Below are positions 10,361-48,655 of a DNA stretch of 64,000 nucleotides, piece after piece. The translations under genes and the position numbers were made by a program. The number at the start of each line of letters is the position of its first letter. Within the stretch, counting starts at the first letter, position 1. Location: contig KV748180.1 of NCBI GenBank assembly GCA_001692895.1, forward strand, positions 2,474,195 to 2,538,194, in the 5' to 3' direction. Below the pieces are notes generated by a model. It was given only the letters and a program-made list of their open reading frames with translations. It was not told the origin of the DNA and did no database searches. The DNA is from Cenococcum geophilum 1.58. Taxonomy: Eukaryota; Ascomycota; Dothideomycetes; Gloniales; Gloniaceae.

Positions 10361-11062
10361 CCCCTCTTTATCTTCGTCCTTAAAGATATCCCTTATCTCT
10401 AAGTCGTCTATTAAAGGTATAGTATTCCCGTTTTTAATTTAATGACCTTTATTATTCCTAATGCCTTCTATTAGATCCTTTATATCTAATCATCGTAACC
10501 GGCTGGTGACGTTTATTCTATTACTTGGTAAAGTTATACCGTCCTATTCTTATTATGCGGAGAAGAAGTTAGTATACGTTATAATTACGGCTCCGTCTAG
10601 TTGCTAACCTTCTTCTTATACTAAGTATACGCGTCTTATTATTCTTTATAACCGTTTGGTTCCTTATCTAATCTTCTTTAGGGTTGCGCGTATTAGTAGC
10701 GGCTAAAAGACTAGAGAGTAAGCTGGCTAGGGCCCTTACTAAAGTTCAGCGCCATTTTAATGAGGCGTCTTAGGCTCTAAAAGCTTAACTAAATACTTAT
10801 GCTCGCCTAAGCCGTCTAGCAAAGGTGCGTAAAAAGGTGCGCTTAAAAGAGCTTTATTTAGTAGAGTAAGGTCTATTTAAACTTAAGGCTAAGGAGGCTA
10901 AAAAGGGTTATAATTAAGAAGAGGCGGAAACAGTTTATACGCCGGTAGTGAATCCCTTAGATAACCCGGCTCGTCTATTGCCTTTAACTAATCCTTTTGT
11001 TTTAAGCTTCTTTTTAATATTACCTAACCTATTTTCTTTTAATACTCCTATACCTTTCCTAT
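10361..11062 (+). pseudogene. Antisense frame in Gyp2: Zn2Cys6-like cluster plus coiled coil
   Basis: Reads opposite to Gyp2 gag-pol, in the gap between chromodomain and 3' LTR. The first part (about 10535-10635) has residues at the spacing C-x2-C-x6-C-x13-C-x2-C, with Tyr where RIP would convert Cys (TGY to TAY). After a change of frame near 10640, a frame with only a few TAA/TAG stops reads AAKRLESKLARALTKVQ (from 10699) and continues through YARLSRLAKVRKKVRLKE, a Lys/Arg/Leu-rich coiled-coil-like segment. It ends PIPFL-stop at 11062. This is the best preserved of four copies (also in Gyp3, Gyp4, Gyp5). Its C-terminal end overlaps the chromodomain end on the other strand. Function unknown; DNA-binding or regulatory is only a guess from the Cys spacing. 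Confidence 0.62.
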
Positions 11063-14000
11063 AGCATTTTTTAAATTCTATAGTACTTCCTAGGTAGTCT
11101 TATTATAGCCTATCCACTTAACCTTATACTATATTTTATTATTAATGTCCTTATAACTAACAATCTTTAAAACTTACTATTTATCTTCCTCTTATCCTCT
11201 ATACATGTCTGCTTTATAGATTAGTAGCTTAATATTTCTATATACTAGCTCTAGCATTACAATATACTATATAGGGTAGATCTTTATTTTAGCTAGTAGG
11301 TTTAGCTTAAATATAACCGGTAAAATCCTTTAAATAATTTTAAAAGGTCCTAGTCTGATATAGTCTAACTTCTTACTTAGTTATTAACTCTTAAAATTTT
11401 TATATAGTAGCTATACTTTGTCTCCCTCCTTAAGATCTAGTCCCTTAGATCTCTTAGCATTATAGTACCTTTTTATTCTTTTTTATACTTTCCTTACTAA
11501 TTCTACAAGGTCTATATAAAGATTTATTAGCGTCTTTATTCTTTCTTTAGCTATGCTACTTATTTTCTTCGCTTATTATAGTAATAACGATATTCTTAGC
11601 TTATATCCGTAATTTGCCTTAAATAGTAATATGCCTATTCCTTCTTGTAGTGTTGCGTTGTATATAAATTATATAACTAGTAATAATAATACCTAATTGT
11701 TCTATACGTGATTAATATAATATCTTAGATACTGTTCTAGCGTCTAATTTAATCCTTTTATTTAACTATCCGTCTGCGGGTAATATACGGTAGAAGTTGC
11801 TACTCTAACTCCTTGTTCCGCTAAAAATACCTCCTAAAATACTACTATAAATCTTAGATCTCTGTCCAATATAATCTTACTTAGTGCTCTATATTTTATA
11901 AACACTTCCTTAATATAGATTCTAGCAATATCCTCCACTAAGATTTCTTCTATGCATACTATAAAGTAGCCCTATTTAGTTAACTTATCTATTATTACTA
12001 AGATTATATTATACTCTTATCCGGTAATAGGGTCTCTTAACTTTAATAACTTAATAATAAAGTCCTATAATATAACCTTCTATAGTCTCTCTGGTATTTT
12101 AATAGGTAATAGCCCTCTATATAGCTTATACCTTATTAGTTTATTCCTTTAGCAATCTAAACACTCCTTTATTACTTTTCTTACGATATTTTAGATTCCG
12201 TTAATAATGTATTCTTCCTAAAGTCTTAACACTAAGCCTATTACTCTGTTATATCCTTAAGTTATTCCCTTATAGAAGTCTTCTATAAAATGCTCTGCTA
12301 TGCTTTTTAGGATATACTTTGCTTCTTAATTCTCGTTATATCCATTCGTAGATCTTCTAGCTATACTTTTAGAATTCTTTACGCCTAAAAGCTCTTTAGT
12401 GTCTTATAGATTCTTTCTAGTTTATTGTCCTCTTAGGTTGCTGCTAGCTTAGGGTAATTATACTTAATTAATCCGTCCTTATCTTTGCGTAGCATTGCTC
12501 CTAATGGTTTTTTATTATTTTATAATTCAGCCTTTTTGCTTAGTGTATCTGCCCTTATATTCTTAGTTCCCTTAATATACTAAATCTTAAAATGGTATTC
12601 TATAAGTATCTCTACCTATCTAACTTATCTATAATTGAGTTCTTTTATTATTAGAAACCCTATTAGGTTCTTATAATCTATCTTAACTATAAATGGTTTC
12701 TCTACGCCTTATAAGAATGCTCTTTATTTATTAAGTGCTGTAACTATACCTAATAACTCCTTATTATAAACGTCATAGTTTAATTCTAATAGTGTTATCT
12801 TCCAACTATAGTATGCTACTAAATGCCATGCGTCCCTATGCTTCTGTAGTAAGTATACTCCTAATATATAATCCAATATATCTATTTCCACAACCGTATC
12901 TAGTCCTAGTTAGTAGATTTTAAGGATTGGCTCTTAGGTAAATAATTCTTTAAGTTCTTTAAATAGCTTTCTTTATTTATTTCCCTATGCCTATAGTTTC
13001 TCCTTCTTTATAAGCCTAGTAAATAGTTTAATATTCTTTAACTATTGTGCTATAAACCTCCTATAGTAGTTGCAAAACCCTAAAAATAACCTTAACTGTA
13101 TTATATTCTCTAGTTCTTACTAACTTACTATAGCTTTAATTTTTTTTAGGTCTATACTAATATAACCTAGTTTAATAATAAATCTAATAAAATCGGTCTT
13201 CCTTATAAAGAACTCGTATTTCTTAATCGCTACTAGCATCTATTCTTCTTATAGTCTCTTTAAGACCTATTTAACGTATTCCCCGTGTTCTTCCTTATTT
13301 ATTAAGTAGATAATAATATTATTAAGGTATGCTATAATAAACTTATTAAGGTATTCTCCTAACACGCTGTTAATTCTTTTCTAAAACGTTACTAGTGCAT
13401 TTATTAATCTAAATTGCATTACTAATAGTTTATATAGTCCTTTTTTTTAACCTAAAGGCTACCTTCTATTTATCACCTTCCTTAATTTTAATCTAATGGT
13501 ATGCCTATCTCAGATCTATCCTCGTAAAGATTTGCGCGTTACCTATCCCATCTTAGATTTCGCTAATTAAGGGTAAAGGATACCTATCCTTCTAAGTAAT
13601 GCTATTTAACTACCTATAGTTAATGCATAGCCTAAGTTTTCCGTTCTTCTTTAGTATAAATAGTACTAGATAACCTACTAATAACTGTAATAGTCTGATA
13701 TATCCCTTTTATAAGTTCTTTTAGATAAACTTTTTAAGTGCTCTTAACTCCTCTTAAGTAAGCTTATAGGTTAAAAAGAATCTTAGACTCGTTTCTAGTT
13801 CTAACTCTATCTTATAGTTCTACACTATATAATCCACCAGCTTTTTACTTTCTAGGCTCTATAGTTTCTTACTATACTTATAATATCTCTTTAGTATATA
13901 ACTTAAGCCTCGCTTAGTCTCTTCGTATATTACTCTAACTTAGTACTATACTAACTTAGTTTACTACCACATCTTACGTTGTTAAGTATCTTTAATATTA

Positions 14001-16403
14001 ACCTAGCCTGTAATCTAATTAATCTTTAGATTGTATTCCTATAACTAAGGTATTCCTAATACTACCTTATCTTGTCCTAATAGTAGGATATTAAAAGATA
14101 TCTTAATTTGTTTTCCTTTAATAGTTATCTAAATAGGTCCTATTTTAAGATTAATAATCTCTCTTCTATAGGCTATTAGATCTCCCAAAATTATAACTAA
14201 TAGGTAAGGTTATTCCTTCTATCTATAAGGTAATCCTATTCTCTTAACTGCTATTAGTAAGATGTAGTTCTATATTACTCCACTATCTATTAATGCTTTA
14301 AACTGTTAATCTTGCCATTTAACTTATAAATTTAGGTATTGTCCTTAAATTCCTTTAAGGGTCTAAGGCTCTACTACTAGCTCCCTCTAGTCCTGTAGGC
14401 CTCCACTTTTCCTAATTATTAGCTGCTAGATCCTTATACACTTAGCTCGCTCTTTAGCCAATATCTAGTTTACTTTTTATCCTCTATATGCTATAGACAC
14501 GTATTCTTTAGGCATTTCTACTACTATTATCCGTCTAAGCATTCTTCCGTAAGGAATCTTTTTAGTTAAAGTATTAAGTCTTTTAACTCCTAAACTTCTA
14601 CTAGATACCAGCTATATATATACTTAGCATTTCTATACTATCGCTCTTCTAGCGCCTAATATATCCTTATAAAGTATTTCCAATTCTTTTTTTTTAGATT
14701 CTTATATATTTTATATATATCGTCTATATATACAATCTATAATAGTATATAGTATATTAGGTGCTTTAGGTTAACTCTTAACTTATTTTCGTTTTTAAGT
14801 TTAAACCTTTATCGTGCTAATCTAAACGTTATAACTTTATTTGTAGGTACTAAGATACGTCTCTTGCTTCTCTAGTCCTCTAATTATTCTTTTAGATCCT
14901 TTAACGTTATAATTAAGGCTCCTTTAATATAAGTTATAGCCTTCTCTGTAATTAGGTGGTCTTAAATAACTTATTTATCTAATTATATATAGAAATCTTC
15001 CTACTTATTATTATGTCGCTATCTATACCACTTTTAGTACAGCTATTAAAGTATATATAGCTTGTCCGTAAGGAAGTATCTTCTTATTACTATATTATAA
15101 CAGCCTTTAGTATATTGTTCTTTAAATCTAGTAGGGATCCCTAGATCCTCTTTATTTTCTATTTTAGTAAGCCACTTAGCTCTTAGTGTGCCTGCCCTAG
15201 GCCTATTAGTAATTCTTTATATAGGTGCTCTATCTCTTATACGGCCTAGTGTACTAGATCTCTAGTCTAGTTTCTATTCTTACTATACGATGATTCTTTA
15301 CCTAAATTCTTCTATAGTATCTTTTGGTTTGCGTCTTATAGATAAATCCTTAAAGTTCTCTTACTTCTTAATCCTGGTATTAATATTTTAATCCTATTAC
15401 TAAGCCTTACTCGCAATTTCTTTAATAGTCCTTATTCTATTATTAAAATCTTAGTCCTATAGGATTTTTAATCCTAAGCTTGCTTCTATCTTAAGCTTTA
15501 CTCTAGCCTTAGTCTAACTAGGCTTCTATAGTGTTTTTATCTCATCTTAAAAGTCTTATGCTTTTAGGAAACGTCGTCCCAAGCTTATTCGTATATTGCT
15601 AAACTGAGCCATTACTCTGCTCTATCGGTTATTGTCCATTATAGGTCCTTAAGCTTATCTTATCCCGTTTTAGGAATCTTAAGCGTCTTACATTTCTTCT
15701 TAAAAATCTTAAGCCTTTAGCCTTTTACCTTTATTAAGTGCTAAAGTAGTTTGCTGTCCTACTTCTCTTACATTTTATAAAGCGATAGATATTATATCTA
15801 GTAGGGTCTTAATCCCTACTAATGTTCCCTATTCTATAGTGGNATTATNCTCTACNTNTTATATAANNTNTNTNAGGTNTNTATACTNCTAGTAAGCTNC
15901 NTTTATTACCTTATTATTACNNAATATTTCGCCTATATTAAATTTATCGTCCTTAATATCCGATCTGCGAACTAGTTTATTAGTTCCTCTAAACTCTAAT
16001 AATTTTAGCTCTTATAGCTAATAGCTTACGCTATACTTAGCGTCCTTATAAATTTAGTATATATTATTATAACAAAACGCGAAACTTTTAATTAAATACT
16101 CTTTTGTTCCTTATAGTATATTATTATCCCTTTATACGTATATATTATCTACTAATCTTATTCCTTTTACTATATAGTAACTTTAACTACTTCTACAGTC
16201 TTTAACGTAATAACCCTATTTTCCGCAATTTATATAAGCCCCTTTTTTAAACCATTTTTCTTACTATAGAGTCCGCCTAAACGTCTTCTGCTATTAAGAT
16301 CCCTAGTTTAGCCTCTACTCCTTAGACCTTTAATTACTTAATCCTTATCCTCTAGGTTTTTATAGTCGTTTATTTTATCTTTAGTTTTCTTTAGTATTAC
16401 TTA
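10930..16403 (-). pseudogene. Gyp2 pol and gag C-terminal half, RIP-inactivated
   Basis: Minus-strand order from right: gag C-terminal part with a zinc knuckle near 16215-16260 (AYINCGK-GYY, the CCHC His now Tyr), a long linker, aspartic protease about 14030-14330, RT about 13000-13750, RNase H about 12600-13000, integrase about 11300-12450, and chromodomain about 11045-11185 (key stretch QVLKIVSYKDINNKI). Every domain carries TAA/TAG stops. The gag N-terminus is 38 kb away at 54982-55813 because TRG1 inserted in gag. The protein would have been a single Gag-Pol, as in Gyp5. Confidence 0.92.
15843..15922. other. Ambiguous-base patch in Gyp2 gag
   Basis: About twenty scattered single N calls. 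The same stretch in Gyp4 (about 51286-51370) is fully called, and Ns fall mainly at C/T or G/A positions. This looks like collapsed or mixed repeat copies in the assembly. Similar patches are at 31589-31633, 33751-33827, 39493-39536 and 40170-40223. Confidence 0.8.
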
Positions 16404-16593
16404 TATGACGGCTCGAACCATTAAACAAATGTCTTGACGTAGACTTGAACAAATGCTTGCAAGATGAAGCGAACGAATGCTGTATTACAAAGATATCAAG
16501 GTAAGGAGCAGAAGGTGGTAAGGCCACGTCTAAATACACAAGCCAAGCCTTAAGCGAACCCCTGACTAGGTGACGCGCCCCAGCGCCGTTACA
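16404..16593 (-). repeat. TRG1 3' LTR (190 bp)
   Basis: Plus-strand termini TATGACGGCTCGAACC...CGCCGTTACA. It differs from the partner at 54787-54976 by only about three G/A transitions. ACTTA duplication on its left. Confidence 0.95.
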
Positions 16594-17757: not shown

Positions 17758-18176
17758 TATTACGGACGCTTTAAGTATAATATTATAACTATTTAAAGAA
17801 GAGTTGGAAGAAGCTAGTTAGTTAATTTAGGTATAGTCTAGAATAGAGTTAATAGAGCTATATAATAAGAAATAATAACTAAGGTTATATAACGTTATAC
17901 GCAGTATACGCAGTATATAAAGGGAACGTATATATAATATATATAATACATACCTTACGTATAAAGGGGATTTCTTAGGAGTATAGTTATATATTTAAAG
18001 GACCACAGTCCCTACTTAAATAGTTCTCTCCTTTATAATAAATCTTAGAATATAATTAGAGTTAATCTATTAGGTAACTACTCCACTAATTATATTTACG
18101 TTGTTAACTATTCTATACCTATATACCCAGCCTATTAATAAGTCTACTATAATTCCTGCTATAAGGCTTTATTATA
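17758..18176 (+). repeat. Gyp3 5' LTR (419 bp)
   Basis: TATTACGGACGC...GGCTTTATTATA; first and last two bases are RIP-altered TG and CA. Same length as the 3' copy. Confidence 0.95.
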
Positions 18177-28773: not shown

Positions 28774-30955
28774 AGAATAGATACTAGTAGCAATTGAGAA
28801 GTACAAGTTCTTTATAAAAAAAACTAATTTTATTAAATTTATTATTAAACTAGGTTATATTAGTATAGACCTAAAGAAGATTAAAGCTATAGTAAGTTGG
28901 TAAGAACTAGAGAATATAATATAGTTAAGGTTAGTTTTAGGGGTTTGTAACTACTACAGAAGGTTTATAATATAATAGTTAAAGAATATTAAACCGTTTA
29001 CCAGGCTTATAAAGAAAAAGGAACTATAGGTATAGGGAAATAAATAAAAGAAGTTGTTTAAGAAACTTAAAAAGTTATTTACCTAGAAGCCAATCCTTAA
29101 AATCTATTAACTAGGATTAGACACGGTTATAAAAACAAACGCATTAAACTATATACTATAAGTATATTTACTACAGAAGTATAAGGACGCATAGCACCTA
29201 ATATTATATTATAGTAGAAAGATAATACTACTAAAGTTAAACTATAACGTCTATAATAAGGAGTTATTAGGGATAGTTATAGCACTTAAGAAATAGAGAG
29301 TATTCTTATAAGGCGTAGAGAAACTATTTATAGTTAAAACGGATTATAAAAACCTAACGGGGTTCCTAATAACAAAAGAACTTAATTAGAGGTAAGTTAA
29401 ATAGGCAGAGATGCTTATAGAATACTATTTTAAAATTTAGTATACTAAAGGAACTAAGAATATAAGAGCAGACGCACTTAGTAGAAAAGCTAAACTATAG
29501 AATAATAAGAAGCTATTAGGAGTAATACTACGCAGAGATAAGGATAGATAAATTAGATATAATTACCCTAAACTAGCAGCAACTTAAAAGGATAATAAAT
29601 TAAAAAGAGTCTATAAGACACTAAAAAGCTTTTAGGTATAAAGAATTCTAAAAGTATAACTAGAAGATCTATAGATAGATATATATATATATATAAAAGC
29701 GAAGTATATCCTAAAGAGTGTAGCAAAGCATTTTATAGAAGACTTTTATAAGGGAATAACTTAAGGATATAAAAGAGCAACGGGCTTAGTATTAAGACTT
29801 TAGGAAGAATATATTATTAATAAAATCTAGAATATCGCAAGAAAAGTAATAAAGAAGTGTCTAAATTACTAAAGAAATAAACTAATAAGGCATAAGCTAT
29901 ATAGAGGGCTATAACCTATTAAAATACTAAAGAGACTATAGAAGGTTATATTATAGGACTTTATTATTAAGTTACTAAAGTTAAAAAATCCTATTACCGG
30001 ATAAGATTATAATATAATCTTAGTAATAGTAAATAAGTTAACTAAATAGAGCTACTTTATAGTATATATAGAAGAAATCTTAGTAAAGGATATTACTAAA
30101 ATCTATATTAAAGAAGTGTTTATAGATATAGAGTACTAAATAAAATTATATTGGATAGGGATTTAAGATTTATAATAGCATTTTAGGAGGTATTCTTAGC
30201 GAAGCAAGAAGTTAAAGTAGTAACTTCCACTATATATTACCCGCAGATAGACAGTTAAATAAAAAGATTAAATTAGACGCTAGAATAGTATCTAAGATAT
30301 TATATTAATTACGCATAAAATAATTAGGTATTGCTATTACTAGTTATATAGTTTATATATAATATAATACTATAAGAAGGAATAGGCATATTACTATTTA
30401 AGGCAAATTATGGATATAAGCTAAGAATATTATTATTACTATAGTAAGCGAAAAAAATAAGTAGCATAGTAAAAGAAAAAATAAAGACGTTAATAAATCT
30501 TTATATAGACCTTATAGAATTAGTAAAGAAAGTATAAAAAAGAATAAAAAGGTACTATAATGCTAAGAGATTTAAGGGACTAGATCTTAAGGAGGAAGAT
30601 AAAGTATAGCTACTATAGAGGATTTCACTAGTGATATTTAAGTTAAACCTACTAGCCAAGATAAAGATCTACCCTATATAGCATATTGCGATGCTAGAGC
30701 TAGTATATAGGAATATTAAGCTATTAGCTTATAAAGTAGACACATATAGAGAATAAGAAAAAGATAAATAGTAAGTTTTAAAGATTATTAGTTATAAAAA
30801 CATTAATAATAAAATATAGTATAAGGTTAAGTAGATAGGCTACACTAAAACTACCTAAGAGTCACTAAAAAATTTAAAAAATACTATAAGAAAGGTACAG
30901 AAGTATTAAAAGAAATTAGGTTAAGTAGTATTAATAAAGAAAAATTGCTAAAGAA
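28774..30955 (+). pseudogene. Gyp3 RT end, RNase H, integrase, chromodomain
   Basis: Continues Gyp3 pol after Cop2. The RT thumb begins LVAIEKYKFF near 28790. RNase H is about 29080-29470 (YNVYNKELLGIVIALKK near 29240). Integrase has the zinc-binding H/C region near 29735-29900 and core about 29930-30500 with ITGQDYNIILVIVNKLTK near 30000. The chromodomain is about 30763-30885 (QVLKIISYKNINNKI, then IGYTKTT). All parts carry stops. Compared with Gyp5, a stretch near 30620 is shortened by a deletion ahead of the chromodomain. Confidence 0.92.
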
Positions 30956-31640
30956 TAAGTTACCTAAGGGGGACCTAAAAAGAGCAGTTACTAAACTACT
31001 TAGATTTATTTTCTTCTTAACTAGAAGAGAATCTATTCTTTTATTATTAAGTTTTTATAAACCTTATTCTATAAGTTTCTACTTCTTAAAATAAACCTTC
31101 TTATAAACCTTCTTAAGACGAAGTAACTGAGTAGATGCCGCAATATAGGCTTTAAAAGCCTTCTACTCTATATTATAAGAACGTTCCAATTTAGTAAGGG
31201 CTTAAGATAGTTCACTATCTAGCTATATAGTAGTAGATTAAATATAAGACTCTAAGACAAATTAATTAAGGAACTAGATAACTATTTAGAGTAATAGGTT
31301 GCGTATATTTAGCATTAAAGATAGAGTAAATATTATAGGATAAATAAATATTCGCTTTAGTACACTTTAAGTAAAAGAACAATTATTATAAGGAAGGGCT
31401 TACTAATGTAATATAAACTAACCCCTTTTTTAAACAGCAGAAATATGGAGATGGTATAATCTTACCAAAAGATAATATTATAGCAATAGTGCGAGTATAA
31501 CGTTACGCCTATAAAGAGGAAGGAGCCTTAGGTATAATAAGCAATAATATTAACTAAATTAATTAGATAGATATTATACCTCTAGTAAANNACNTAGAGA
31601 TATTTANAATCTTTAANNATAAAGATANANAGNAGGGAGA
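30884..31640 (-). pseudogene. Antisense frame in Gyp3: Zn2Cys6-like cluster plus coiled coil
   Basis: Opposite to Gyp3 gag-pol, same relative place as in Gyp2, Gyp4 and Gyp5. The cluster (about 31365-31460) reads PYFCCLKKGLVY, then YLKCTKAN, giving Cys or Cys-derived Tyr at C-x2-C-x6-C-x13-C-x2-C. After a frame change, the coiled-coil part reads TKLERSYNIE and then LLRLKKVYKKVYFKK (about 31075-31200), continuing to LVTALFRSPL and PVPFL-like at the stop at 30884. Stops are mostly TAA/TAG at likely Gln positions. Ns near 31589-31633 cover the presumed N-terminus. Confidence 0.6.
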
Positions 31641-37280: not shown

Positions 37281-37369
37281 AAAGCGAATTAGCCACGTAG
37301 TGACTGCGTTTAATATTCGCAAATATTGCAGGAGGTCTTAGCATTATACGTTACTAAGGTAGTTGCTAC
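37281..37369 (-). repeat. Yr1 split direct repeat A1, inner part
   Basis: 89 bases of the A repeat up to the Gyp4 insertion; the other 24 bases are at 53174-53197. Ends in GCTAC (37365-37369), the Gyp4 target duplication (GCTGC on the right). 37082-37280 between ORF1 and A1 is non-coding leader. Confidence 0.92.
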
Positions 37370-37792
37370 TGTAACGGAACCTTATAGCAGGAACTATAAT
37401 AGGCTCGTTATTAGGCTAGGTATATAGGTGAAGTAAGTTAAAGTTAATAATGTAATAATAACTAGTGGAGTAGTTGCCTAATAGATTAACTCTAATTATA
37501 TTCTAAGAATTACTATAAGGAAGGAACTATCTAGGTAGGGACTAAGGGTCCTTAAATACATAACCGTACTCCTAAGAAATCCTTCTTATATATAATGTAC
37601 GTCTTATATATAAGGTATATAAGTTCCTCTTATTTCTCTTGTTTAATATATAGCATATTATATAACCTTAGTTACTATTCCTCGTTATATAGTTTTATTG
37701 GCTCCATCCTAGACTATACTTAAATTAACTAACTAGCTTCTTCCGACTCCCCTCCTAGTAGCTATAATATTATACTTAAAGCGTCCGTAACA
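37370..37792 (-). repeat. Gyp4 3' LTR (423 bp)
   Basis: TGTAACGGAACC...GCGTCCGTAACA on the plus strand, intact TG/CA ends. Confidence 0.95.
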
Positions 37793-37799
37793 CTATCTC

Positions 37800-38552
37800 C
37801 CTCCTCTTTATCTTTGTCCTTAAAGATTTAAAATATCTCTAAGTTATTTACTAGAGGTATAATATCCGTCTAATTAATTTAGTTAATATTATTACTTATT
37901 ATACCTAAAGCAATTTCTTCTTTACACGCCCAACGTTGTGCTCGCACTGTTGCTGTAATAGTATCTCTTAATAAGATTATACCGTCTCTATATTCTTACT
38001 ATTTAAAAGAGGGGTTAGTCTATATTGCGTTAGCGAACCCATCTTTACAATAACTGTCCTCTTATTTGGAGTGTACTAAAGTAAATATTTATTTGTCCTA
38101 TAACATTCGCTCTACCTTTAATACTAAATATACGCGACCTATTACTCTTAATAGTTATCTAGTTCCCTAATTAATTTATCTTAGGGTTTTATATTTAATC
38201 TACTGCTACGTAGCTAAATAGTAAACTATTGTATACCCTTATAGAGTTAGAATGTTCTTAGAATGCGGAATAGAAGGCCCTAGATACTCGTATTATGGCG
38301 TCTACTTAATTACTCCGTCTTAAGAAGGTTTATAAAAAGGTGTATTTTAAAGAGTAGAAACTTATAAAATAAGGTCTGTAGGAACTTAGTAATAAAAGAA
38401 TAGATTTTTTTTTAATAGAGAAGGAAATAGATCTAAGTAGCTCGGCAACTATTCTTCTTAGGTCCCCCTTAAGTAACTTATTCTTTGGCAATCCTTCTTT
38501 ATTAATACTGCCTGACCTAATTTCTTCTAATACTCCTATACCTTTCCTATAG
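37800..38552 (+). pseudogene. Antisense frame in Gyp4: Zn2Cys6-like cluster plus coiled coil
   Basis: Reads opposite to Gyp4 gag-pol. N-terminal part is open with few stops. The cluster (about 37985-38085) reads LYSYYLKEGLVY, then YLECTKVN, the same spacing as in the other copies with Cys or Tyr. After a frame change near 38160, the coiled-coil part shows KLLYTLIELE and LLRLKKVYKKVYFKE (about 38320-38355), then IDLSSSATILLRSPL and PIPFL-stop at 38552. The C-terminal end overlaps the chromodomain on the minus strand. Confidence 0.62.
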
Positions 38553-41172
38553 CGTTCTTTAAATTTTTTAGTAGCTCTTAGGTAGTCTTAGTGTAGCCTA
38601 TCTACTTAACCTTATACTATATTTTATTATTAACGTCCTTATAACTAACGATCTTTAAAACTTATTATTTATCTTTTTTCTAACCTCTATATGTGTCTGC
38701 TTTATAAACTAGTGGCTTAATATTCCTATATACTAGCTTTAGCATTACAATATACTATATAGGGTAGATCTTTATTTTAGCTAGTAGGTTTAACTTAAAC
38801 GTAACCGGTGAAATCCTTTATATAATTTTAAAAGGTCTTAGTCTAATATAGTCTAACTTCTTACTTAGTTGTTAACTCTTAAAATTTTTGTGTAGTAGCT
38901 ATACTTTATCTCCCTCCTTAAGATTTGGTCCCTTAGATCTCTTAGTATTATAGTACTTTTTTATTTTCTCTTATATTTTCTTTACTAATTCTATAAGGTC
39001 TATATAAAGATTTATTAACGTCTTTATTCTTTCTTTTACTATACTACTTATCTTCTTTACTTATTATGGTAATAATAATATTCTAGGCTTATATCCGTAA
39101 TTTGCCTTAAATAGTAATATACCTATTTCTTTTTAAGGTATTATATTATATATAAACTATATAACTAGTAATAATAATACCTAATTATTTTACGCGTGGT
39201 TAATATAGTGTTTTAGATACTGCTCTAGTGTCTAATTTAATCTTTCCGTTTAACTGTCTGTCTATAGATAATATACGGTAAAAGTTGCTACTCTAACTTC
39301 TTACTCCGCTAAGAATACTTCCTAGAATACTGCTATAAATCTTAGATCTCTATCTAATATAATCTTACTTAGTGCTCTATATCTTAAGAATATTTCCTTT
39401 ATATAGATTCTAGCGATATCTTCCGCTAAGATTTCTTCTATATATGCTATAAAGTATCCCTACTTTATAAGCTTATCTACTATTACTAAGATNNNNTTAT
39501 AATCTTNTCCGGTAATAGGNTNTNTTAANTTTAGNAACTTAATAATAAAGTCCTATAATATAACCTCCTATAGTCTCTCTAGTATTTTAATAGGTTGTAG
39601 CCCTCTATATAGCTTATGCCTTATTAGTTTATTTTTTTAGTAATTTAGATATTCCTTTATAACTTTACGCGCTAGTTCCTAGATTCTATTAATAATATAC
39701 TCCTCTTAGAGTTTTAATACTAAGCCTCTGGCTCCATTGTATCCTTAAGTTATTCCCTTATAGAATTTTTCTATAAATTATCCTACTATGCTTCTTAGGA
39801 TGTACTTAGCTTCTTAATTCTTATATATATCCGTCTATAGATCTTCTAGCTATACTTTTAGAATCCTTTATACCTAAAAGCTTTTTAGTATTTTATAAAC
39901 TCTTTCTAGTTCTTCCTAAGTTATTATAATTTTTGGATAATTATACCTAATTAATCCATCTATATCTTTTCGTAGTAAAGCCCCTAATAGCTTCTTATTG
40001 TTTTATAGTTTAGCTTTTTAACTTAAAGCATCTGCCCTTATATTATCTATACCCTTAGTATACTAAATCTTAAAATGGTATTCTGTAAGCATCTCTACCT
40101 ATCTAACCTATCTTTAGTTAAGTTCCTTTATTATTAGGAATCCTATTAGGTTCTTATAATCCGTCTTAANTATAAATANTTTNTCNNTNCCTTATAANAA
40201 TNCTNTNTATTNCNTTANTNCTNTAACTATACCTAATAACTCCTTATTATAGATGTTATAGTTTAACTCTAGTAGTATTATCTTCCAACTATAGTATACT
40301 ACTAGGTGCTATCTATCTTAATATTTCTATATAAAGTACGCCCCTAGTATATAGTCTAATGTATTTGTTTTTATAACTATCTCTAGTCCTAGTTAATAGA
40401 TCTTAAGAACTAGCTCCTAGATAAACGACTCTTTGACTTTTTTTTAAAAAGTTCCCTTTATTTCTCTCCCTATGCCTATAGTTTTTCTTTTTTTATTAAT
40501 TGCGTAAACGGCTTAATATCCTTTAACCATTATACTATAAACCTTCTATAGTAATTGCAAAACCCTAGGAATAATCTTAACTGCGTAACGTTCTCTAGTT
40601 CTTGCTAATTTACTATAGCCTCGATCTTCTTTAGATCTATACTAAGTTGGCCTAGTTTAATAATAAATTTAACGAAATCTGTCTTCCTAATAAAGAACTT
40701 GCATTTCTTAATTGCTACTAGCATCTATTCTTCTTATAGTCTCTTTAAGACCTATTTAACGTATTCTCCGTGTTCTTCCTTACTTATTAAGTAGATAATA
40801 ATATTATTAAGGTATACCATAACAAATTCATCTAAGTGTTCTCCTAATATATTATTAATGCGCTTTTAGAACATTACTAGTGCGTTTATAAGCCCAAATT
40901 ATATAACTAATAGTTTATATAGTCCTTCCTTTAACCTAAAGGCTGNCTTCCATTTATTGCCTTCCTTAATCCTAATCTAATAGTACGCCTATCTTAGATC
41001 TATCTTTATAAAGATTTGCGCGTTACCTATCCTATCTTAAATTTCGCTAATTAAGGGTAAAGGATACCTATCCTTCCTAGTGATGCTGTTTAACTGTCTG
41101 TAGTCAATATACAGCCTTAGTTTGCTATTCTTCTTAGGTATAAATAGTACTAGATATCCTGCTAATGATTAT
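38460..41172 (-). pseudogene. Gyp4 RT end, RNase H, integrase, chromodomain
   Basis: Minus-strand order from right: RT from the Gyp5 insertion at 41172 down to about 40500, RNase H about 40100-40480, integrase about 38800-39950, chromodomain about 38553-38690. The RT block around 41060-41160 matches Gyp5 45330-45440. Ambiguous bases at 39493-39536 and 40170-40223 obscure parts. Multiple TAA/TAG stops. Confidence 0.9.
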
Positions 41173-41594
41173 TATTACAAACGCTTTAAGTACGATGTTA
41201 TAACTACTAGGAGAGGAGTCGGAAGAAGCTAGTTAGTTAATTTAGGCACGGTCTAGGATGGAGCCGATAGAACTATATGACGAGGAATAGTAACTAAGGT
41301 TATATGACGTGCTATGTATTAAATAAGAGGAACGAGAGGAACTTACGTACCTTATGTATAAGACGTACATCACGTATAAGAAGGATTTCTTAGGAGTACA
41401 GTTGTGTATTTAAGGACCTTTAGTCCCTACCTAGATAGTTCCTTCCTTATAGTAATTCTTAGAATATAATTAGAGTTAATCTATTGGGCAACTACTCCAC
41501 CAGTTATTATTATTTGTTAACTTTAACTTATATTACCTATATACCTAGCCCATTAATAAACCCATTGTAGTTCCTACTATAAGGTTCCGTTATA
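41173..41594 (+). repeat. Gyp5 5' LTR (422 bp)
   Basis: TATTACAAACGC...GGTTCCGTTATA; RIP-altered ends. The 3' copy keeps TGTTACGG at its start. Confidence 0.95.
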
Positions 41595-41639
41595 TAATTA
41601 CTACCTGGTTACGGTATTAAGTATAAAAAGTTAAATAAT

Positions 41640-44600
41640 ATACCACCAAAGACAGCCACTACGACGCCATTAACGGCGGTAACTACTTTAAGGTTAGTAG
41701 GTAACACTAGTATAGCGGACACTAACTTTTAGTAACCTGTGACGGTCGGACAGTTATAAGAGGTAATTAATTAGTTAATAGCTAATAATACAGTGTTAGA
41801 AGAAAGGGTTAATGGGATAGGAGTAGCGAAGGTTAAGTTACCATTAATTAAGAGATTCTTAGGAGAAAGAACGAAGCTTAAGGGATTCCTTACGTAAATG
41901 CACTTTAAAGTTATATAAGAAGGGGTAAAGCTATTAATACCTATGGATCGAATAGCCTATGCAGGACTATTCTTATTAAGAAGAGTACTTAAGTAGTTTA
42001 AACCTTATTTTATAGAGATATAGACGAATGGGATAACAACCACTAACTAAGAGGTGCGATTTATGTTCTTAAGCTGGGAAGGATTTATAGAGCGACTTAT
42101 ATAAATATTTGGAGACCCGGAGGCAGTGACTATAGTAAAAAGAAAACTTTAAGACCTTATATAAAGAATATTAGTAATTAAGTATATAACGTAGTTCCAG
42201 ACGCTAGTAATATAAGTAAAGTGAAATAATAAGGCGCTTATAGTATAGTATAAATAAGGACTTAAGGCTAAAGTTTAGGACATAATTATCCTAATAGAAG
42301 ATGCGGATACCCTAAGGGACCTAATAGATTAAGCGATTAAGATTAATAATTGGATCTACTAAAGGGAACAGACTAAGAGAGGTTAAAATAGAGTTCTATA
42401 GTTATATAAGGCGTAAAGTACGTAATAACTAAAGCTAAGTTAGAAATTATGGTATGGTGCGGAGCTAATAGACCTAAGTGGTACTAAAGAAGCCTATAAG
42501 AGATAGAGTAAGAAACTATAGAAATTTAGAGGTTAAGGATTTAGTGATTATAGGACTAAGGAGTAGAGGCTAAACTAGGGATCTTAGTAGTAGAAGATAT
42601 TTAGGCGGACTTTATAGTAAAGTTAATGGTTTAAAGATGGAGCTTATATAAATTATAGGAAATAAGGTTATTTTGCGAGGAATTATAAAGATGGTTAGAG
42701 TTACTATATAATAAAGGGAATAAGACTAGTAGTGGAAGACATATATATATAGAGGGACAATAGTATACTGCGAGGAATAAAGGAATGTTTAATTAGAAGT
42801 TTTACGTTCTATTATAACAACACATACCAAATTTATAAAGACGCTAAGTATGGCGTAAGCTATTAGCTATAGAAGCCGAAATCTATATAGTATAGAGGAA
42901 CTAATGAATTAGTTTATAGATCGGATATTAAGGACGATAACTTTAACGTAGGCGAAACATTCTGTAATAATAAGGTAATAAAGGCGGCTTACTAGGAGCA
43001 CGTAAACCTTAGAGATGTTATAATAGAGGTAGAGGATAATTCTACTATAGAATAGGGAATATTAGTAGGGATTAAGACCCCACTAGACACGATGTTTATT
43101 GCTTTATAAGATATAAGAGAAGTAGGACAGTGAACTACTTTAGTACTTAATAAAGGTAAAAAGCTAAAGGCTTAAGATTCTTAAGACAAGATAAGAGATG
43201 ACTAAGACTTTTAAGATAAAATAAGGTAGACCTAAGGACCTATAATAGATAGCAACCGATAGAGTAGGGTAGTAGCTTAGTTTAAAGATATATAAATAAG
43301 CTTAGGATAGAGTTTCCCATAGGTATAAGACTCTTAAAGTAAAATAAGTGAGATTTAAAACTCTTAAGACGAGATAAAAACACTAAGTAAGCCTAGATAG
43401 ACTAAGGCTAGAGTAAAGCTTAAGTTAGAAGTAAGCTTAGGATTAAGAATCCTATAGAACTAAGACTTTAAGTAACAAATAAGGACTATTAAATAGATTA
43501 GAGAATCTATAGTATAAACAGTAACTAGACTGGGAGACAGATATATAAACTTAGAGGACTTATTAGTAGAATATAGTGTTCGGACTAAAGATTAAAAAGT
43601 TAATACTAAGATTAAGAAGTAAGAAGACTTTAAGGATCTACTTATAAGACGCGAAAGAAAAGAGACTATAGAGGACTTTAGGGCAAAAATTACCTTATAG
43701 TAAGAATAGAAACTAGATAAGAGATCTAGCACGTTAGGACGTACTAAGGATAGAGTACCTGTATAAAGAATCACTAATAGGCCTAGGGTAGGCACACTAA
43801 GAGCTAAGTGGCTTATTAAACTGGAATAAGAAGAGGATTTAGGGATTTTAACTAGGTTCGAGGAACGACATATAAAAGGCTGTTACGACGTAGTAATGAG
43901 AAGATACTTCCTTATAGATAAACCGTATATACTCTAGCAGCTATACTAAAAGTAGTATAGGCAAAGGCACAACAATAAGTAGGAAGATTTCTATATATAG
44001 TTAGACGAGAAAGTTATTTAAGACTACCCGATTATAGAAAAAGCGATAAGTTATATTAAGGGAGCCTTAATTATAATATTAAAAGATCTAAAGGAGCGTT
44101 TAGAGGACTAAAAAAGTAAAAGACATATCTTAGTACCTGCGAATAAAGTTATAACGTTTAGATTAATATAAGAGAGGTTTAAACTTAAGAATAAAGATAA
44201 ACTAAGAGTTAACCTAAAGCACCTAGTATATTATATATTAACGTGGATTATATATATAAATAATACGTATAATATATATAGAGCACTAAAGGATAAGTAT
44301 TAAAAATATCCTATAAGAATATATTAGATAACTAAGGAGTAAAAATACTAGAACGCTAAGTATATATATAGCTAGTATCTAGTAGAAGTTTAGGAGTTAG
44401 GAGACTTAATACTTTAGCTAGGAAGATTCCTTACGGAAGAATACCTAGATGGATAATAGTGGTGGGAATGCCTAGAGAATACGTATCTATAGTATATTAA
44501 AGAAAAGAAGCGAACTAAGTATTAGCTTAAGTTGGACTAAGTATAAATAGGATTAAGTAGCTAATAGTTGGGAAAAGTAGAGGCCTACGGGACCAGAGGG

Positions 44601-47600
44601 AGCCAGTAGTAGAGCCTTAGACCCTTAAAGGAATTTAAGGACAACACCTAAATTTATAAGTTAAATAGTAAGATTAATAGTTTAAGGCGTTAATAGATAG
44701 TGGAGCGATAAGGAACTATATCTTATTAGTAGCAGTTAAGAGAATGGGATTACCTTATAAATAAAAGGAGAAACCTTACCTATTAGTAATAATTTTAGGA
44801 GATCTAATAACCTATAGAGGAGGGATTATTAATTTAGAAACAGGACCTATTTAGTTAACTATTAAAGGGAGATAAATTGAGATGTCTTTTAATATATTAC
44901 CATTAGGGAATAATAAGGTAGTACTAGGAATGCCTTAGTTATAGGAATATAATCTAAAGATCGATTAGATTATAAGTTAGGTTAATATTAGAGATACTTA
45001 ACGCCATAAGATATAATAATAAGCTAAGTTAGTATAGTATTAAGTCGGAGCAATATATAAGGAGACTGAGTGAGGCTTAAGTTATATACCAAAGAGATAC
45101 TATAAGTACGGTAAGAAACTATAGTTACTAGAAAGTAAGAAACTGTTAAAATATATAGTATGGGACTATAAGATAGAATTAGAACTAGGAATAAGTCTAA
45201 AGTTCTTTCTAATATATAAGCTTACCGAAGAAGAAGGTAGAGCATTGAAAGAGTTTATCTAGGAAAACCTACGAAAGGGATATATTAGACCATCGCAGTT
45301 ATTAGTAGGATATCCAGTACTATTCGTACTAAAGAAGAATAGTAAACTAAGACTGTGTATCGACTATAGATAGTTAAACAGTATTACTAGAAAGGATAAA
45401 TATTCTTTACCCTTAATTAGCGAAATCTAAGATAGGATAGGTAACACGTAAATCTTTACAAAGATAGATTTAAGATAGGCGTACTATTAAATCCGGATTA
45501 AGGAAGGCGACAAATAGAAGGCAGCCTTTAGGTTAAAGGAAGGACTGTATAAACCATTAGTTATATAATTTAGGCTTATAAACGCACTAGTAACGTTCTA
45601 GAAGCGTATTAATAATATATTAGGAGAACACTTAGATGAATTTATTATGGTATATCTTAATAATATTATTATCTACTTAATAACTAAGGAAGAACACAGG
45701 GAACACGTTAAATGGGTTTTAAAGAGACTATAAGAAGAATAGATGCTAGTAGCGATTAAAAAATGCGAGTTCTTTACTAAAAAGATAGATTTTATCGGAT
45801 TTATTATTAAACTAGGCCAACTTAGTATAGATCTAAAGAAGATTAAGGCTATAGTGAATTAGCAAGAACTAGAGAACGTAATACAGTTAAGATCGTTTTT
45901 AGGGTTTTGCAATTACTATAAAAGGTTTATAGCGCAGTAGTTAAAGGACATTAAGCTATTTACGCGGTTAATAAAGAAAGAAGAACTATAGGTATAGGGA
46001 GAGGAGTAGTAAGAACTCTTTAGAAAAGTTAAAGGGTTATTTACCTAGGAGCTAGTTCTTAAGATCTATTAACTAGGTCTAAAGACGGTTGTAGAGACGG
46101 ACGCATTAGACTATATACTAGGGGTATACTTTATATAGAAATATTAAGATAGATGGCACCTAGTAGTATATTATAGTTGAAAAATAACACTACCGGAGTT
46201 AAACTATGACATTTACAATAAGGAGTTATTAAGTATAGTTATAATACTAAAGGAATAGAGAGCATTCTTATAAGGTATAGAGAAACTATTTATAGTTAAA
46301 ACAGACTATAAGAACCTAATAGGATTTCTAACGACAAAGGAACTTAACTAAAAATAGGTTAGATGGGCGGAGATGCTTACAGAATACTATTTTGAGATTT
46401 AGTATACTAAGGGTAGATGCTCTAAGTTATAAGGCTAAACTATAGAACGATGAAAAGCCATTAGGGGCTTTACTGCGAAAAGATATAGACGGATTAATTA
46501 GATATAACTATCCAAAAATCGCAGCAACTTAGGAAAATAAAGAACTAGAAAAAGTGTACAAGACATTAGAAAGCTTTTAGGAGTAAAGAATTCTAAAAGT
46601 ATAGCTAGAAGATCTATAAATAGATATATATAAGAATTGAGAAGTAAAGTATATTCTAAAAAGCATAGCAGAGCAATTTATAGAAGATTTTTATAAAGGA
46701 ATAACTTAAGGACATAATAGAGCCAGAGGCTTAGTGTCGAGACTCTAAGAGGAGTATATTATTAATAGAATCTAAAGCTTAGCACAGAAAATTACTAAAG
46801 AATATCTAGATTATTAAAGGAATAAACTAATAAGGTATAAGCCGTATAGAGGGCTATAACCTATTAAAACACTAGAGAGACTATAGGAGGTTATATTATG
46901 GGACTTTATTATTAAGTTGCTAAAATTAAGAGATCCTATTACCGGATAAGATTATAACGTAATTTTAGTAATAGTAGACAAGCTTATAAAGTGGGGATAC
47001 TTTATAGTATATACAGAAGAAATCTTAGCGGAAGATGTTGCTAGAATCTATATAAAGGAAGTGTTTATAAAATATAAAGCACTAAGTAAGATTATATTAG
47101 ATAGAGATCTAAGATTTATAGTAGTATTTTAGGAGGTATTCTTAGCGGAGTAAGGAGTTAGAGTAGCAACTTTTACCGTATATTACCTATAGACAGACGG
47201 TTAAATGGAAAGATTAAATTAGACACTAGAGTAGTATCTAAGACATTATATTAATTATGTATAGAATAATTAGGTATTGCTATTACTAGTTATATAGTTT
47301 GCATATAATGCAACACCTTAAAAAGGAATAGGTATATTACTATTTAAGGCGAATTACAGATATAAGCTAAGAATATTATTATTACTATAATAAGTAAAGA
47401 AAATAAGTAGCAGAGCTAAAGAAAGAATAAAGACGTTAATAAATCTTTATATAGACCTTATGGAATTAGTAAAGAAAGTATAAAAGAGAATAAAAAGGTA
47501 CTATAATACTAAGAGATCTAAGGGACCAGATCTTAAGGAGGGAAATAAAGTATAGCTACTATATAAAAATCTCAAGAGTTAATAACTAAGTAAGAAGTTA

Positions 47601-47996
47601 GACTACGTTAGACTAGGACCTTTTAAAATTATATAAAGGATTTTACTGGTTACATTTAAGTTAAACCTACTAGCTAAAATAAAGATCTACCCTATATAGT
47701 ATATTGTAATACTAGAGCTAGTATATAGGAATATTAAGCTATTAGTTTACGAAGCAGACACGTATAAAGGATAGGAAGAAGACAAATAGCAAGTTTTAAA
47801 GCTTATTAGTTATAAAAACGTTAACGATAAAATATAGTATAAGGTAAAGTAGATAGGCTATAATAAGACTACCTAGAAACTACTAAAGAATTAAAAAAAT
47901 ATTATAGGAAAGGTATAGGAGTATTAGAAGAAATTAGGTTAGGCAGTATTAATAAAAAAGGATTACTAAAGAATAAGTCACCTAAGGGGGACCTAA
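41640..47996 (+). pseudogene. Gyp5 gag-pol, RIP-inactivated
   Basis: The start codon is now ATA (41640-41642), followed by PPKTATT-like sequence; Gyp4 keeps ATG in the same context. Order: gag, zinc knuckle near 42645-42690 (AYINY, Cys lost), linker, aspartic protease about 44690-44960 with the catalytic LIDSGAIRN intact, RT about 45250-45790 with LRLCIDYR near 45350 and the catalytic box as YLNN (about 45650), RNase H about 46060-46450, integrase about 46560-47500, chromodomain about 47785-47905. The frame reaches a TAA at 47994-47996. TAA/TAG stops throughout. The minus-strand open frame at 43592-43795 is a shadow. Confidence 0.95.
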
Positions 47997-48655
47997 GAAG
48001 AGCAGTTACTGAACTACTTAGATCTATTTCCTTCTCTATTAAAAGAGAATCTGTTTTTTTATTACTAAGTTTTTATAGACCCTATTCTATAAGTTTTTAC
48101 TTCTTAAAACGCACCTTTTTATAACCCTTCTTAAGATAAAGTAAATGAGCAGACGCCGTAATCTAAGTATCTAAGGCTTTCTATTCCACATTATAAGAAT
48201 ATTCTAGCTTAGTAAGAGCCTAAGATAGTTTACCATCTAGCTAAGTAGCAGTAGATTAGACACGAGATTTTAAGATAAATTAATTAGGGAACTAGACAAC
48301 TATTAAGAGTAATAGGTCACGTATATTTAGCATTAAAAGTAGAGCGAACGTTACAGGATAAATAAATATTTGCTTTAGTATACTTTAAATAAGAGGACGG
48401 TTATTATAAAGAAGGGTTTGCTAACGTAATATAAACTAACCCCTTTTTTAAACAGCAAGAATATAGAGATAGTATAATCTTACTAAGAAATAGTATCGCA
48501 GTAATAGTATAAGCACGACGTTAGGCGTATAAAGAAGAAATTACTTTAGGTATAATAAGCAATAATATTAACTAAATTAATTAAACGGATATTATACCTC
48601 TAGTAAACGACTTAAAGATATTTTAAATCTTTAAGGACAAAGATAAAGAGGAGGG
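47902..48655 (-). pseudogene. Antisense frame in Gyp5: Zn2Cys6-like cluster plus coiled coil
   Basis: Opposite to Gyp5 gag-pol, starting just inside the 3' LTR. Cluster (about 48380-48475) reads LYSCCLKKGLVY, then YLKYTKAN, giving the shared C-x2-C-x6-C-x13-C-x2-C spacing with partial Cys-to-Tyr change. After a frame change, KLS-ALTKLEYSYNVE (about 48190-48240) and LKKGYKKVRFKK follow, then IDLSSSVTALLRSPL. It ends at 47902. Conservation of both segments in four copies argues that it is a real gene rather than chance. Confidence 0.62.

What the first reader, a model, noticed from the sequence alone, without database searches (positions are those of the whole stretch)
10361..48655. Conserved antisense gene in four Gypsy chromoviruses
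Gyp2, Gyp3, Gyp4 and Gyp5 each have a 700-750-bp segment between chromodomain and 3' LTR that reads as protein only on the strand opposite to gag-pol (10361-11062 +, 30884-31640 -, 37800-38552 +, 47902-48655 -). Shared landmarks in the same order are GLVY/KLVY, TK-N/TKYT, a K/R/L-rich block (LKKVYKKV, LAKVRKKV), LLRSPL in Gyp3-Gyp5 and PIPFL or PVPFL at the end. Most stops are TAA/TAG at sites where CAA/CAG is plausible, like the known pol frames. Gyp1 lacks the segment. An extra antisense gene in a fungal LTR element could control the element or its host response. I recall similar coiled-coil proteins annotated as hypothetical next to fungal transposons, but cannot confirm it here.
Basis: partly seen in the sequence, partly recalled or inferred. 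Interest (0 to 1): 0.88.

Follow-up and report, generated by a model that had tools for sequence, protein, structure and literature searches.

The report
Antisense gene in fungal retrotransposons
Mobile elements in this apparently fungal genome carry, between their main genes and their right-hand repeat, a second gene written backwards on the other strand, probably with one intron and coding for a small cysteine-rich protein that may control the element.

Summary
All four Gypsy elements of the window carry an antisense coding segment beside the 3' LTR; "Gyp1" lacks it only because it is the 5' half of the element whose 3' half is "Gyp3". The landmarks fall in two reading frames separated by a 55-nt intron-like stretch. 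Between copies, non-RIP changes (transversions) concentrate at third codon positions of those frames (exon 2: 14 of 16 columns; exon 1: 6 of 8), and amino-acid conservation over both exons favours the antisense strand over the sense frames with the same third positions (bootstrap P 0.0085 and 0.001). Open relatives exist in unnamed public contigs: 33 proteins for exon 1 (E down to 1.5e-49), 87 for exon 2 (1e-36). One (P0035) joins the exons across the proposed intron. Six exon-1 sites are Cys or Tyr in every relative that covers them (C-x2-C-x6-C-x13-C-x2-C-x8-C; RIP can turn Cys into Tyr); exon 2 is helix-rich, possibly a coiled coil. U3 plus this gene behaves as a cassette swapped between lineages with nearly the same pol. 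Precedents are brtn of Boty (Botrytis) and plant Retand/Grande antisense ORFs: a new variant of a known kind. Function (a regulator of its own LTR) is inferred.

The parts
37802..38129 (+). Gyp4 antisense exon 1 (frame +1), six Cys/Tyr sites; the open frame extends upstream into the 3' LTR
37586..37801 (+). Gyp4: upstream part of the same frame inside the 3' LTR; start codon not placed
   Evidence: P0014 2-210 aligns to 37586-38206; low stop density in this frame near the LTR end; codon phase not significant over the LTR
38130..38184 (+). Gyp4 proposed 55-nt intron (branch-like CTAAT, AG end; the donor position is AT in nearly all copies here, GT in few)
38185..38552 (+). Gyp4 antisense exon 2 (frame +2), helix-rich, with stop at 38550-38552
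10367..10626 (+). Gyp2 antisense exon 1 (this copy lacks about 55 bp that sister copies have); start set at the LTR boundary by analogy with Gyp4
10627..10681 (+). Gyp2 proposed intron
   Evidence: boundaries shifted by 3 after reading the printed sequence
10682..11064 (+). Gyp2 antisense exon 2 with stop
48325..48652 (-). Gyp5 antisense exon 1 (start by analogy)
48270..48324 (-). Gyp5 proposed intron
   Evidence: boundaries shifted by 3
47902..48269 (-). Gyp5 antisense exon 2 with stop
31307..31632 (-). Gyp3 antisense exon 1 (start by analogy; contains masked bases)
31252..31306 (-). Gyp3 proposed intron
   Evidence: boundaries shifted by 3
30884..31251 (-). Gyp3 antisense exon 2 with stop
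37357..37790 (-). 3' LTR of Gyp4 (partner 52734-53168 by position); the antisense frame starts in or beside it
41175..49083 (+). Gyp5 element, inserted into Gyp4, LTRs 41175-41606 and 48664-49083
38496..38735 (-). Sense end of pol: chromodomain-like end (limits approximate, sense stop not placed), overlapping the last codons of antisense exon 2 tail to tail
   Evidence: sense translation; SH3_Tf2-1 match just upstream

Best explanation
It is a real protein-coding gene on the strand opposite to gag-pol in a family of fungal Gypsy elements that end in a chromodomain-like stretch. SHOWN BY SEQUENCE: two coding stretches under purifying selection, in frames that differ by one, next to the 3' LTR; open relatives elsewhere; six sites in the first stretch that are only Cys or Tyr in the relatives; a helix-rich second stretch. 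STRONGLY INFERRED: the stretches are two exons joined by a 55-nt intron (about 67 nt in two loci); the frame starts inside the 3' LTR and ends tail to tail inside the sense chromodomain codons. INFERRED: antisense transcription from the 3' LTR makes a spliced mRNA for a small, metal-binding, probably coiled-coil and nuclear protein that binds the element's own U3 and tunes its transcription or copy number (my estimate 0.4 for that role). The co-inheritance of U3 and this gene as one exchangeable cassette is what a matched regulator and target would produce.
For: Codon phase of transversions; transversion pN/pS 0.13-0.61 in the two antisense frames. Antisense frames beat the sense frames that share their third positions: mean BLOSUM62 at transversion-differing codons 0.09 vs -0.53 (G45xG2, P 0.0085) and 0.35 vs -0.37 (10 G45 and 8 G2 copies drawn at random against 19 divergent loci, P 0.001). 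Modal lengths between fixed marks differ by multiples of 3 between subfamilies (37800-38150: 350 in G45/G3, 344 in G2; 38205-38553: 348, 363; middle 55 in both); single copies deviate, for example 7 of 20 G3 copies on the exon-2 side. Relatives: 33 of 8000 scored candidates for exon 1, 87 of 3515 for exon 2 at E<=10, the weakest at 3.6e-13 and 1.3e-5. P0035 reads the end of exon 1 (..SVSNAE) straight into exon 2 (WSQVQSAAAKL), the phase that removing 55 nt gives; own-genome matches to P0035 start at residues 16-18 in 137 of 150 rows, later in 11, at 13 and 15 in two. Six Cys/Tyr sites: 33/33, 33/33, 33/33, 30/30, 30/30, 30/30 in the relatives, against 1.9% Cys and 3.3% Tyr elsewhere in that stretch.
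Against: No transcript or protein was seen. The intron rests mainly on one protein (P0035) whose DNA I could not fetch. Its donor is not GT in nearly all copies here (A at 38130 in 62 of 63; 18 of 19 divergent loci); RIP at TpG would explain this but is not proven. Between subfamilies the proposed intron varies less than the exons and its changes lean to the third positions of frame +1, as if it were read. Part of exon 2 does not support the antisense frame: in 38400-38552 omega is 1.39 (G45xG2) and 1.13 (G3xG2), and in 38400-38470 its BLOSUM mean is below that of frame -2; indels sit there, but this is unresolved. In 38205-38400 the sense frame has the lower omega for G45xG3 (0.14 vs 0.28) and G45xG2 (0.63 vs 0.73). 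In 37795-37900 the antisense frame is not favoured for G45xG2. Both ends overlap other functional DNA (LTR end/PPT, chromodomain). Exon 1 gave a poor model (mean pLDDT 50) and no Pfam family. The 3.5-residue period in exon 2 is matched by exon 1 used as a control (P 0.03), so the coiled coil is only likely; this and the phase in the intron made me lower the confidence from 0.8 to 0.78.
Confidence: 0.78

Rival explanations
1. Sense-strand coding: pol continues, or a further sense ORF exists, and the antisense frames are its shadow because third positions coincide.
For: Sense frames -2 (exon 1) and -0 (exon 2) share the third positions; both strands are nearly free of stops in 38400-38552; in 38205-38400 the sense frame has the lower omega for G45xG3 and G45xG2, and in exon 1 the two are about equal for G45xG3 (0.22 vs 0.20).
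Against: Over both exons amino-acid conservation favours antisense (P 0.0085, 0.001); omegas within G2 and within G45 favour antisense in 38205-38400 (0.07 vs 0.54; 0.13 vs 0.25); more stops in the sense frame of exon 1 (7.3 vs 3.9); the cysteine pattern is an antisense pattern; the frame runs through the PPT into the LTR.
Confidence: 0.06
2. Two separate antisense ORFs, or one ORF joined by +1 ribosomal frameshifting (the stretch at 38180-38186 resembles the Ty1 shift site as I recall it), rather than an intron.
For: At least 17 of 33 exon-1 proteins run on into the proposed intron and end soon after; between subfamilies the stretch is well conserved with changes at third positions of frame +1; no GT donor in nearly all copies.
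Against: P0035 lacks exactly this stretch and has Trp at the joint, as splicing predicts and frameshifting does not; the codon before AGG varies among pyrimidine codons in the 12 G2 copies printed; the donor codon is Tyr or Cys in 28 of 30 exon-1 proteins, as a GT donor hit by RIP would give; AG end kept in 55 of 63 copies.
Confidence: 0.16
3. A passenger: a host gene picked up once, carried along without a role for the element.
For: No function is shown; cysteine-cluster plus coiled-coil proteins of unknown function occur in fungi (recalled, no call).
Against: It is under constraint in three element subfamilies and has relatives elsewhere, overlaps the LTR and chromodomain, and moves together with U3.
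Confidence: 0.15
4. The antisense RNA itself (dsRNA/siRNA) is what matters; the reading frame is a by-product.
For: A regulatory role of antisense transcripts through dsRNA is discussed for plant elements (PMC7264820, passages).
Against: A by-product would not show third-position bias, frame-keeping modal indels and Cys/Tyr sites.
Confidence: 0.05
5. Chance: AT-rich RIPped DNA read in a convenient frame.
For: The copies examined are heavily RIPped (TA/AT 1.64 in 22 copies), so open frames are not visible directly.
Against: Open homologues at E 1.5e-49 and 1e-36, codon-phase and strand tests.
Confidence: 0.01

Closest known systems
brtn, the additional antisense gene of Boty-like Gypsy elements in Botrytis cinerea (Zhao et al. 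2011, Virology; not held, seen only as cited in passages of PMC7264820, PMC8365987, PMC4227169 and PMC5987419)
   Same: Antisense gene between pol and the 3' LTR of a fungal Gypsy element whose gag-pol has a CHROMO domain (PMC7264820 and PMC4227169 passages); an assembled Monilinia transcript resembles it (PMC5987419 passage)
   Different: I had no BRTN sequence, so homology is untested; intron, cysteine pattern, extension into the LTR and U3 cassette exchange are not mentioned in the passages I saw
Antisense aORFs of plant Retand, Grande, RIRE2 (aORF-3R)
   Same: [quoted passage not shown] a regulatory role is proposed (PMC11963269 and PMC7264820 passages)
   Different: Retand is a plant non-chromovirus and encodes TRP28 (PF04195), not found here; the word intron does not occur in either paper
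HTLV-1 HBZ
   Same: Antisense gene of a retrovirus with a promoter in the 3' LTR (PMC7264820, PMC11963269 passages); as recalled it is spliced, starts in the LTR and has a coiled-coil (bZIP) domain
   Different: A basic leucine zipper, no cysteine cluster (recalled); no homology detected or expected
Fungal Zn(II)2Cys6 regulators such as Gal4 (recalled)
   Same: Six cysteines in a similar order with a helical stretch after them
   Different: No PF00172 match; the middle loop is 13 residues against 5-12 in the recalled signature, and its basic residues are missing

Membership tests
Ty3/Gypsy chromovirus (host element) | Reverse transcriptase and RNase H of the Gypsy type on the sense strand | tested here: met
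   Gyp5: RVT_1 2.2e-18, RT_RNaseH 2e-20; that the RT is of Gypsy type was not tested by a tree
Ty3/Gypsy chromovirus (host element) | Chromodomain at the end of integrase | tested here: inconclusive
   Chromodomain-like by eye in the sense frame (..YKVKWIGY..TT[stop]ELLENLKNA..); SH3_Tf2-1 just upstream at E 1.2e-5, below its cut-off; no Pfam chromodomain match at E<=1 in Gyp4 and L018
Ty3/Gypsy chromovirus (host element) | Pairs of LTRs | tested here: met
   Four pairs, identity 0.92, 0.89, 0.89, 0.88; for Gyp4 and Gyp5 the pairing rests on position, since their four LTRs are all 0.87-0.90 alike
Antisense aORF between pol and 3' LTR (Retand/Grande/Boty kind) | Coding frame antisense to gag-pol, between pol and 3' LTR | tested here: met
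Antisense aORF between pol and 3' LTR (Retand/Grande/Boty kind) | Present in several families | tested here: met
   Three subfamilies aligned, more divergent loci, relatives elsewhere
Antisense aORF between pol and 3' LTR (Retand/Grande/Boty kind) | Present in most copies of a family | tested here: inconclusive
   4 of 4 elements in the window; genome-wide only capped lists (150 of 150 scored candidates match in each); the share of elements without it was not measured
Antisense aORF between pol and 3' LTR (Retand/Grande/Boty kind) | Antisense transcript | not testable with these tools
   No RNA data
Retand TRP28 family | Pfam PF04195 | tested here: not met
   No PF04195 among Pfam matches at E<=1 for 24 + 24 aligned copies and 10 relatives, or E<=10 for 10 relatives
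brtn (Boty) | Sequence similarity to BRTN | not tested
   No BRTN sequence was available; the paper is not held
Fungal Zn2Cys6 | Six cysteines C-x2-C-x6-C-x(5-12)-C-x2-C-x(6-8)-C (recalled) | tested here: not met
   Observed C-x2-C-x6-C-x13-C-x2-C-x8-C, each site Cys or Tyr: one loop too long; no PF00172 match
HBZ-like | Antisense, spliced, starts in 3' LTR | tested here: inconclusive
   Frame open into the LTR; intron inferred from P0035; no transcript
HBZ-like | Basic leucine zipper | tested here: not met
   No bZIP Pfam match in the proteins scanned

The most novel reading that the evidence does not exclude
U3 of the LTR and the antisense gene form a matched regulator-and-target cassette, like the immunity region of a temperate phage: the spliced antisense protein binds its own U3, and exchange of the cassette between elements that share the same pol lets a lineage escape control by resident copies. 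This would be self-recognition among retrotransposons of one genome.
Probability: 0.25. Interest if true: 0.85.

Novelty: new variant of a known kind. Interest (0 to 1): 0.62.

Why it matters
Antisense genes in LTR elements are known in a few cases, with little known about their proteins. Here there are testable features: an intron-like stretch, a strict six-site cysteine pattern partly hidden as tyrosines by RIP, a helix-rich second half, and a sharp divergence boundary that ties the gene to U3. The open relatives (120 proteins, mostly pieces from one exon or the other) give natural material to work with. If the cassette idea is right, it would be a model for how retrotransposons of one genome tell their own kind from others.

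Tried and rejected
Pfam scans of the X-marked translations and of open relatives gave only sub-threshold matches. PDB by sequence: nothing convincing. The first protein search, with frame +2 over the whole segment, found none of 8000 scored candidates, probably because half of each row is out of frame; the exon-2 part alone then worked. Scans of viral contigs and of genome contigs, which holds bacteria and archaea, gave no relative. A GT-AG intron from AA|GTATAC (57 nt) was considered and rejected because it does not give the exon-2 frame. Counting Cys/Tyr columns in RIPped copies does not discriminate (6 in the coding frame of exon 1, 7 in each of two other frames); the pattern in open relatives does. 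A first cysteine script took wrong anchors and was replaced. The 3.5-residue test for a coiled coil is not decisive: P 0.03 and 0.02 in P0035 and P0114, 0.21 in P0038, and 0.03 in the exon-1 control. AlphaFold for exon 1 was poor (mean pLDDT 50), so no fold search was run; the exon-2 job was never accepted. One search stopped with a script error after printing the G45xG2 rates; one search did the rest. PMC13041039 was searched for six antisense/ORF terms and has none. That I found no fungal report of an intron, cysteine pattern or U3 cassette rests in an open-access library only; the key paper on brtn is not in it.

Rows left out before counts: L045 from the G2 group (poorly aligned), L036 also in 83; Gyp2, L045, L036 and L048; L045, L036 and L084 (81 copies kept), whose group tests also leave out Gyp2 and L048; for pol eight G2 and six G3 copies with insertions; three of 22 G45, six of 21 G3 and ten of 21 G2 rows, with at most 120 random pairs. 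Omegas use at most 150 random pairs. In one search three truncated proteins lack sites 4-6. I looked at 39 of the 87 exon-2 sequences and used 28 in the alignment.


Full report
SETTING. The window lies in an unnamed 177-Mb genome in 162 contigs. That it is fungal is inferred from RIP and the element type; no call names it. RIP is strong: in 22 copies of the segment TA/AT averages 1.64 and (CA+TG)/(AC+GT) 0.37. Gyp5 is 41175-49083, inserted in Gyp4 (LTRs 37357-37790 and 52734-53168). Gyp1 and Gyp3 are the two halves of one element: LTRs 17758-18174 and 31644-32060 are 0.92 identical, and the body stops at 22200 and goes on at 28770. The Gyp2 LTR 9952-10355 is closest to 55853-56273 (0.88). RT and RNase H were found on the sense strand of Gyp5; in Gyp4 a weak integrase-end match lies just before a stretch that looks like a chromodomain by eye.

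IS THE SEGMENT CODING, AND ON WHICH STRAND? I fetched 60 more copies in three subfamilies and aligned them to Gyp4. Because RIP makes transitions, I used transversions. In 43 copies of G45 and G3, columns with a transversion in at least two copies fall by codon phase as 6,1,1 in 37802-38129 and 1,14,1 in 38185-38549 (binomial P 0.02 and 1.2e-5, columns taken as independent). These are third positions of antisense frame +1 in the first part and +2 in the second. Sense frames -2 and -0 share those third positions, so strand needs its own test. At codons that differ by a transversion, BLOSUM62 means over both exons are 0.09 (antisense) and -0.53 (sense) for G45xG2, and 0.35 and -0.37 for 18 of these copies against 19 more divergent loci; bootstrap P 0.0085 and 0.001. 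Not every comparison agrees. In 38205-38400 the sense frame has the lower omega for G45xG3 (0.14 against 0.28) and G45xG2 (0.63 against 0.73), while the comparisons G3xG2, within G45 and within G2 favour antisense. In 38400-38552 neither strand shows constraint between G2 and the others (antisense omega 1.39 and 1.13; BLOSUM mean -0.97 for G45xG2 in 38400-38470). In 37795-37900 antisense is not favoured for G45xG2. Stop density is lowest in the antisense frames, narrowly so in exon 2 (4.8 against 5.5 for the sense frame). Modal lengths differ by multiples of 3 between subfamilies.

RELATIVES. A search with frame +1 rows, X at stops, found 33 proteins among 8000 scored candidates, E from 1.5e-49 to 3.6e-13; one with exon-2 rows found 87 among 3515, E from 1e-36 to 1.3e-5. 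They are open frames on public contigs, most of them under 5 kb, whose organism is not given; the database holds genomes and metagenomes. Exon-1 relatives extend upstream past the LTR boundary, and P0014 aligns from residue 2 to 210 with 37586-38206, so the frame enters the 3' LTR from the U3 side. Near the LTR end the coding frame has 3.6 stops per 100 codons against 16.8 and 8.8 in the other two frames of that strand; the codon phase over the whole LTR is not significant (21 of 47, P 0.07). The start codon is not placed.

INTRON. Frame +1 must give way to +2 near 38130-38210. P0035 (138 aa) reads ..RLSCDVRSVSNAE straight into WSQVQSAAAKLDGEL.., that is the end of exon 1 and the start of exon 2 with 55 nt absent. 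In the own genome matches to P0035 begin at residues 16-18 in 137 of 150 rows, later in 11, and at 13 and 15 in two. At the DNA level the stretch ends in AG in 55 of 63 copies and has a CTAAT/CTAAG-like site before it in most of the copies printed; two loci have a longer stretch, 67 nt by my count (L079, L082). The donor dinucleotide is GT in one of 63 copies and one of 19 divergent loci, and AT otherwise. A TpG-to-TpA RIP change would explain this: the same codon is Tyr or Cys in 28 of 30 relatives. Against the intron: between subfamilies it varies less than the exons, with changes leaning to third positions of frame +1 (against divergent loci it varies about as much as exon 1); at least 17 of 33 exon-1 proteins run into it; and P0035 is a single sequence whose DNA I could not get.

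PROTEIN. In the relatives six sites in exon 1 are Cys or Tyr without exception (33, 33, 33, 30, 30 and 30 proteins), spaced C-x2-C-x6-C-x13-C-x2-C-x8-C, while Cys is 1.9% and Tyr 3.3% elsewhere in the stretch. In 63 RIPped copies of this genome the same six columns are Cys or Tyr in 370 of 374 codons read, but there other frames have as many such columns. Exon 2 is rich in helix formers (0.74-0.77 in three relatives, 0.39 in exon 1 of P0014); the 3.5-residue hydrophobic period is significant in P0035 and P0114 (P 0.03, 0.02), not in P0038 (P 0.21), and also in the exon-1 control (P 0.03), so it does not prove a coiled coil. There is no Pfam or convincing PDB match. AlphaFold on exon 1 is uninformative. 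The protein's last codons overlap the sense chromodomain-like codons, and its 'TLSPSSLSL' stretch is the complement of LTR end and PPT (my reading), so these parts may be conserved for other reasons.

CASSETTE. Between G2 and G45/G3 transversion divergence is 0.07-0.36 in 100-bp windows from 37570 (U3 side of the LTR) to 38470 (antisense gene) and 0.004-0.012 at 38570, the chromodomain end; it stays below 0.04 to 39500 and rises to 0.1 at most further into pol. Synonymous transversion divergence is 0.30-0.36 in the antisense gene and 0.01-0.12 in sense pol parts. So lineages with nearly the same pol end carry old, different versions of U3 plus antisense gene: the pair has been exchanged as one piece (inference). 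G45 against G3 does not show this. gag was not compared in this way.

MECHANISM (inferred). Antisense transcription starts in the 3' LTR; a spliced RNA is made; the product is a small cysteine-cluster, helix-rich protein, likely a dimer that binds nucleic acid; its likeliest target is the element's own U3. I give 0.4 to this role.

KNOWN. [quoted passage not shown] passages of PMC11963269, and passages and section 7 of PMC7264820) and in Boty of Botrytis and Sclerotinia (brtn, Zhao 2011; not held; cited in passages of PMC7264820, PMC8365987, PMC4227169, PMC5987419). Retand's TRP28 is absent here. HBZ is mentioned in PMC11963269 and the HTLV antisense promoter in PMC7264820; the further details of HBZ are recalled. 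Hence: new variant of a known kind, possibly a member of the brtn family, which I could not test.

Noticed in passing
22202-22472 and 28503-28773: Direct repeats of 271 bp (89%) that flank the insertion splitting Gyp1/Gyp3: probably the LTRs of another inserted element of about 6.6 kb.
   Followed up: partly
16403-16593 and 54786-54976: Direct repeats of 191 bp, 98.4% identical, where Gyp2 is interrupted and seems to resume: probably LTRs of a younger element into which the others are nested.
   Followed up: no
56334-56758 and 59426-59849: LTR-like pieces related to the Gyp LTRs without a close partner among those compared; probably solo LTRs or fragments.
   Followed up: no
10620-10640: The Gyp2 copy lacks about 55 bp of antisense exon 1 that sister copies have; it is near but not at the intron.
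   Followed up: partly
54001-55000 and 57001-58000: GC of 0.46 and 0.43 where the other 1-kb windows are 0.24-0.38: possibly less RIPped or genic stretches.
   Followed up: no
32624-32781/33046-33203 and 57170-57372/58047-58249: Short direct duplications (97% and 94% identical).
   Followed up: no
38130-38184: Between subfamilies the proposed intron varies less than the flanking exons, unexplained; an unspliced isoform or a regulatory role is possible.
   Followed up: partly
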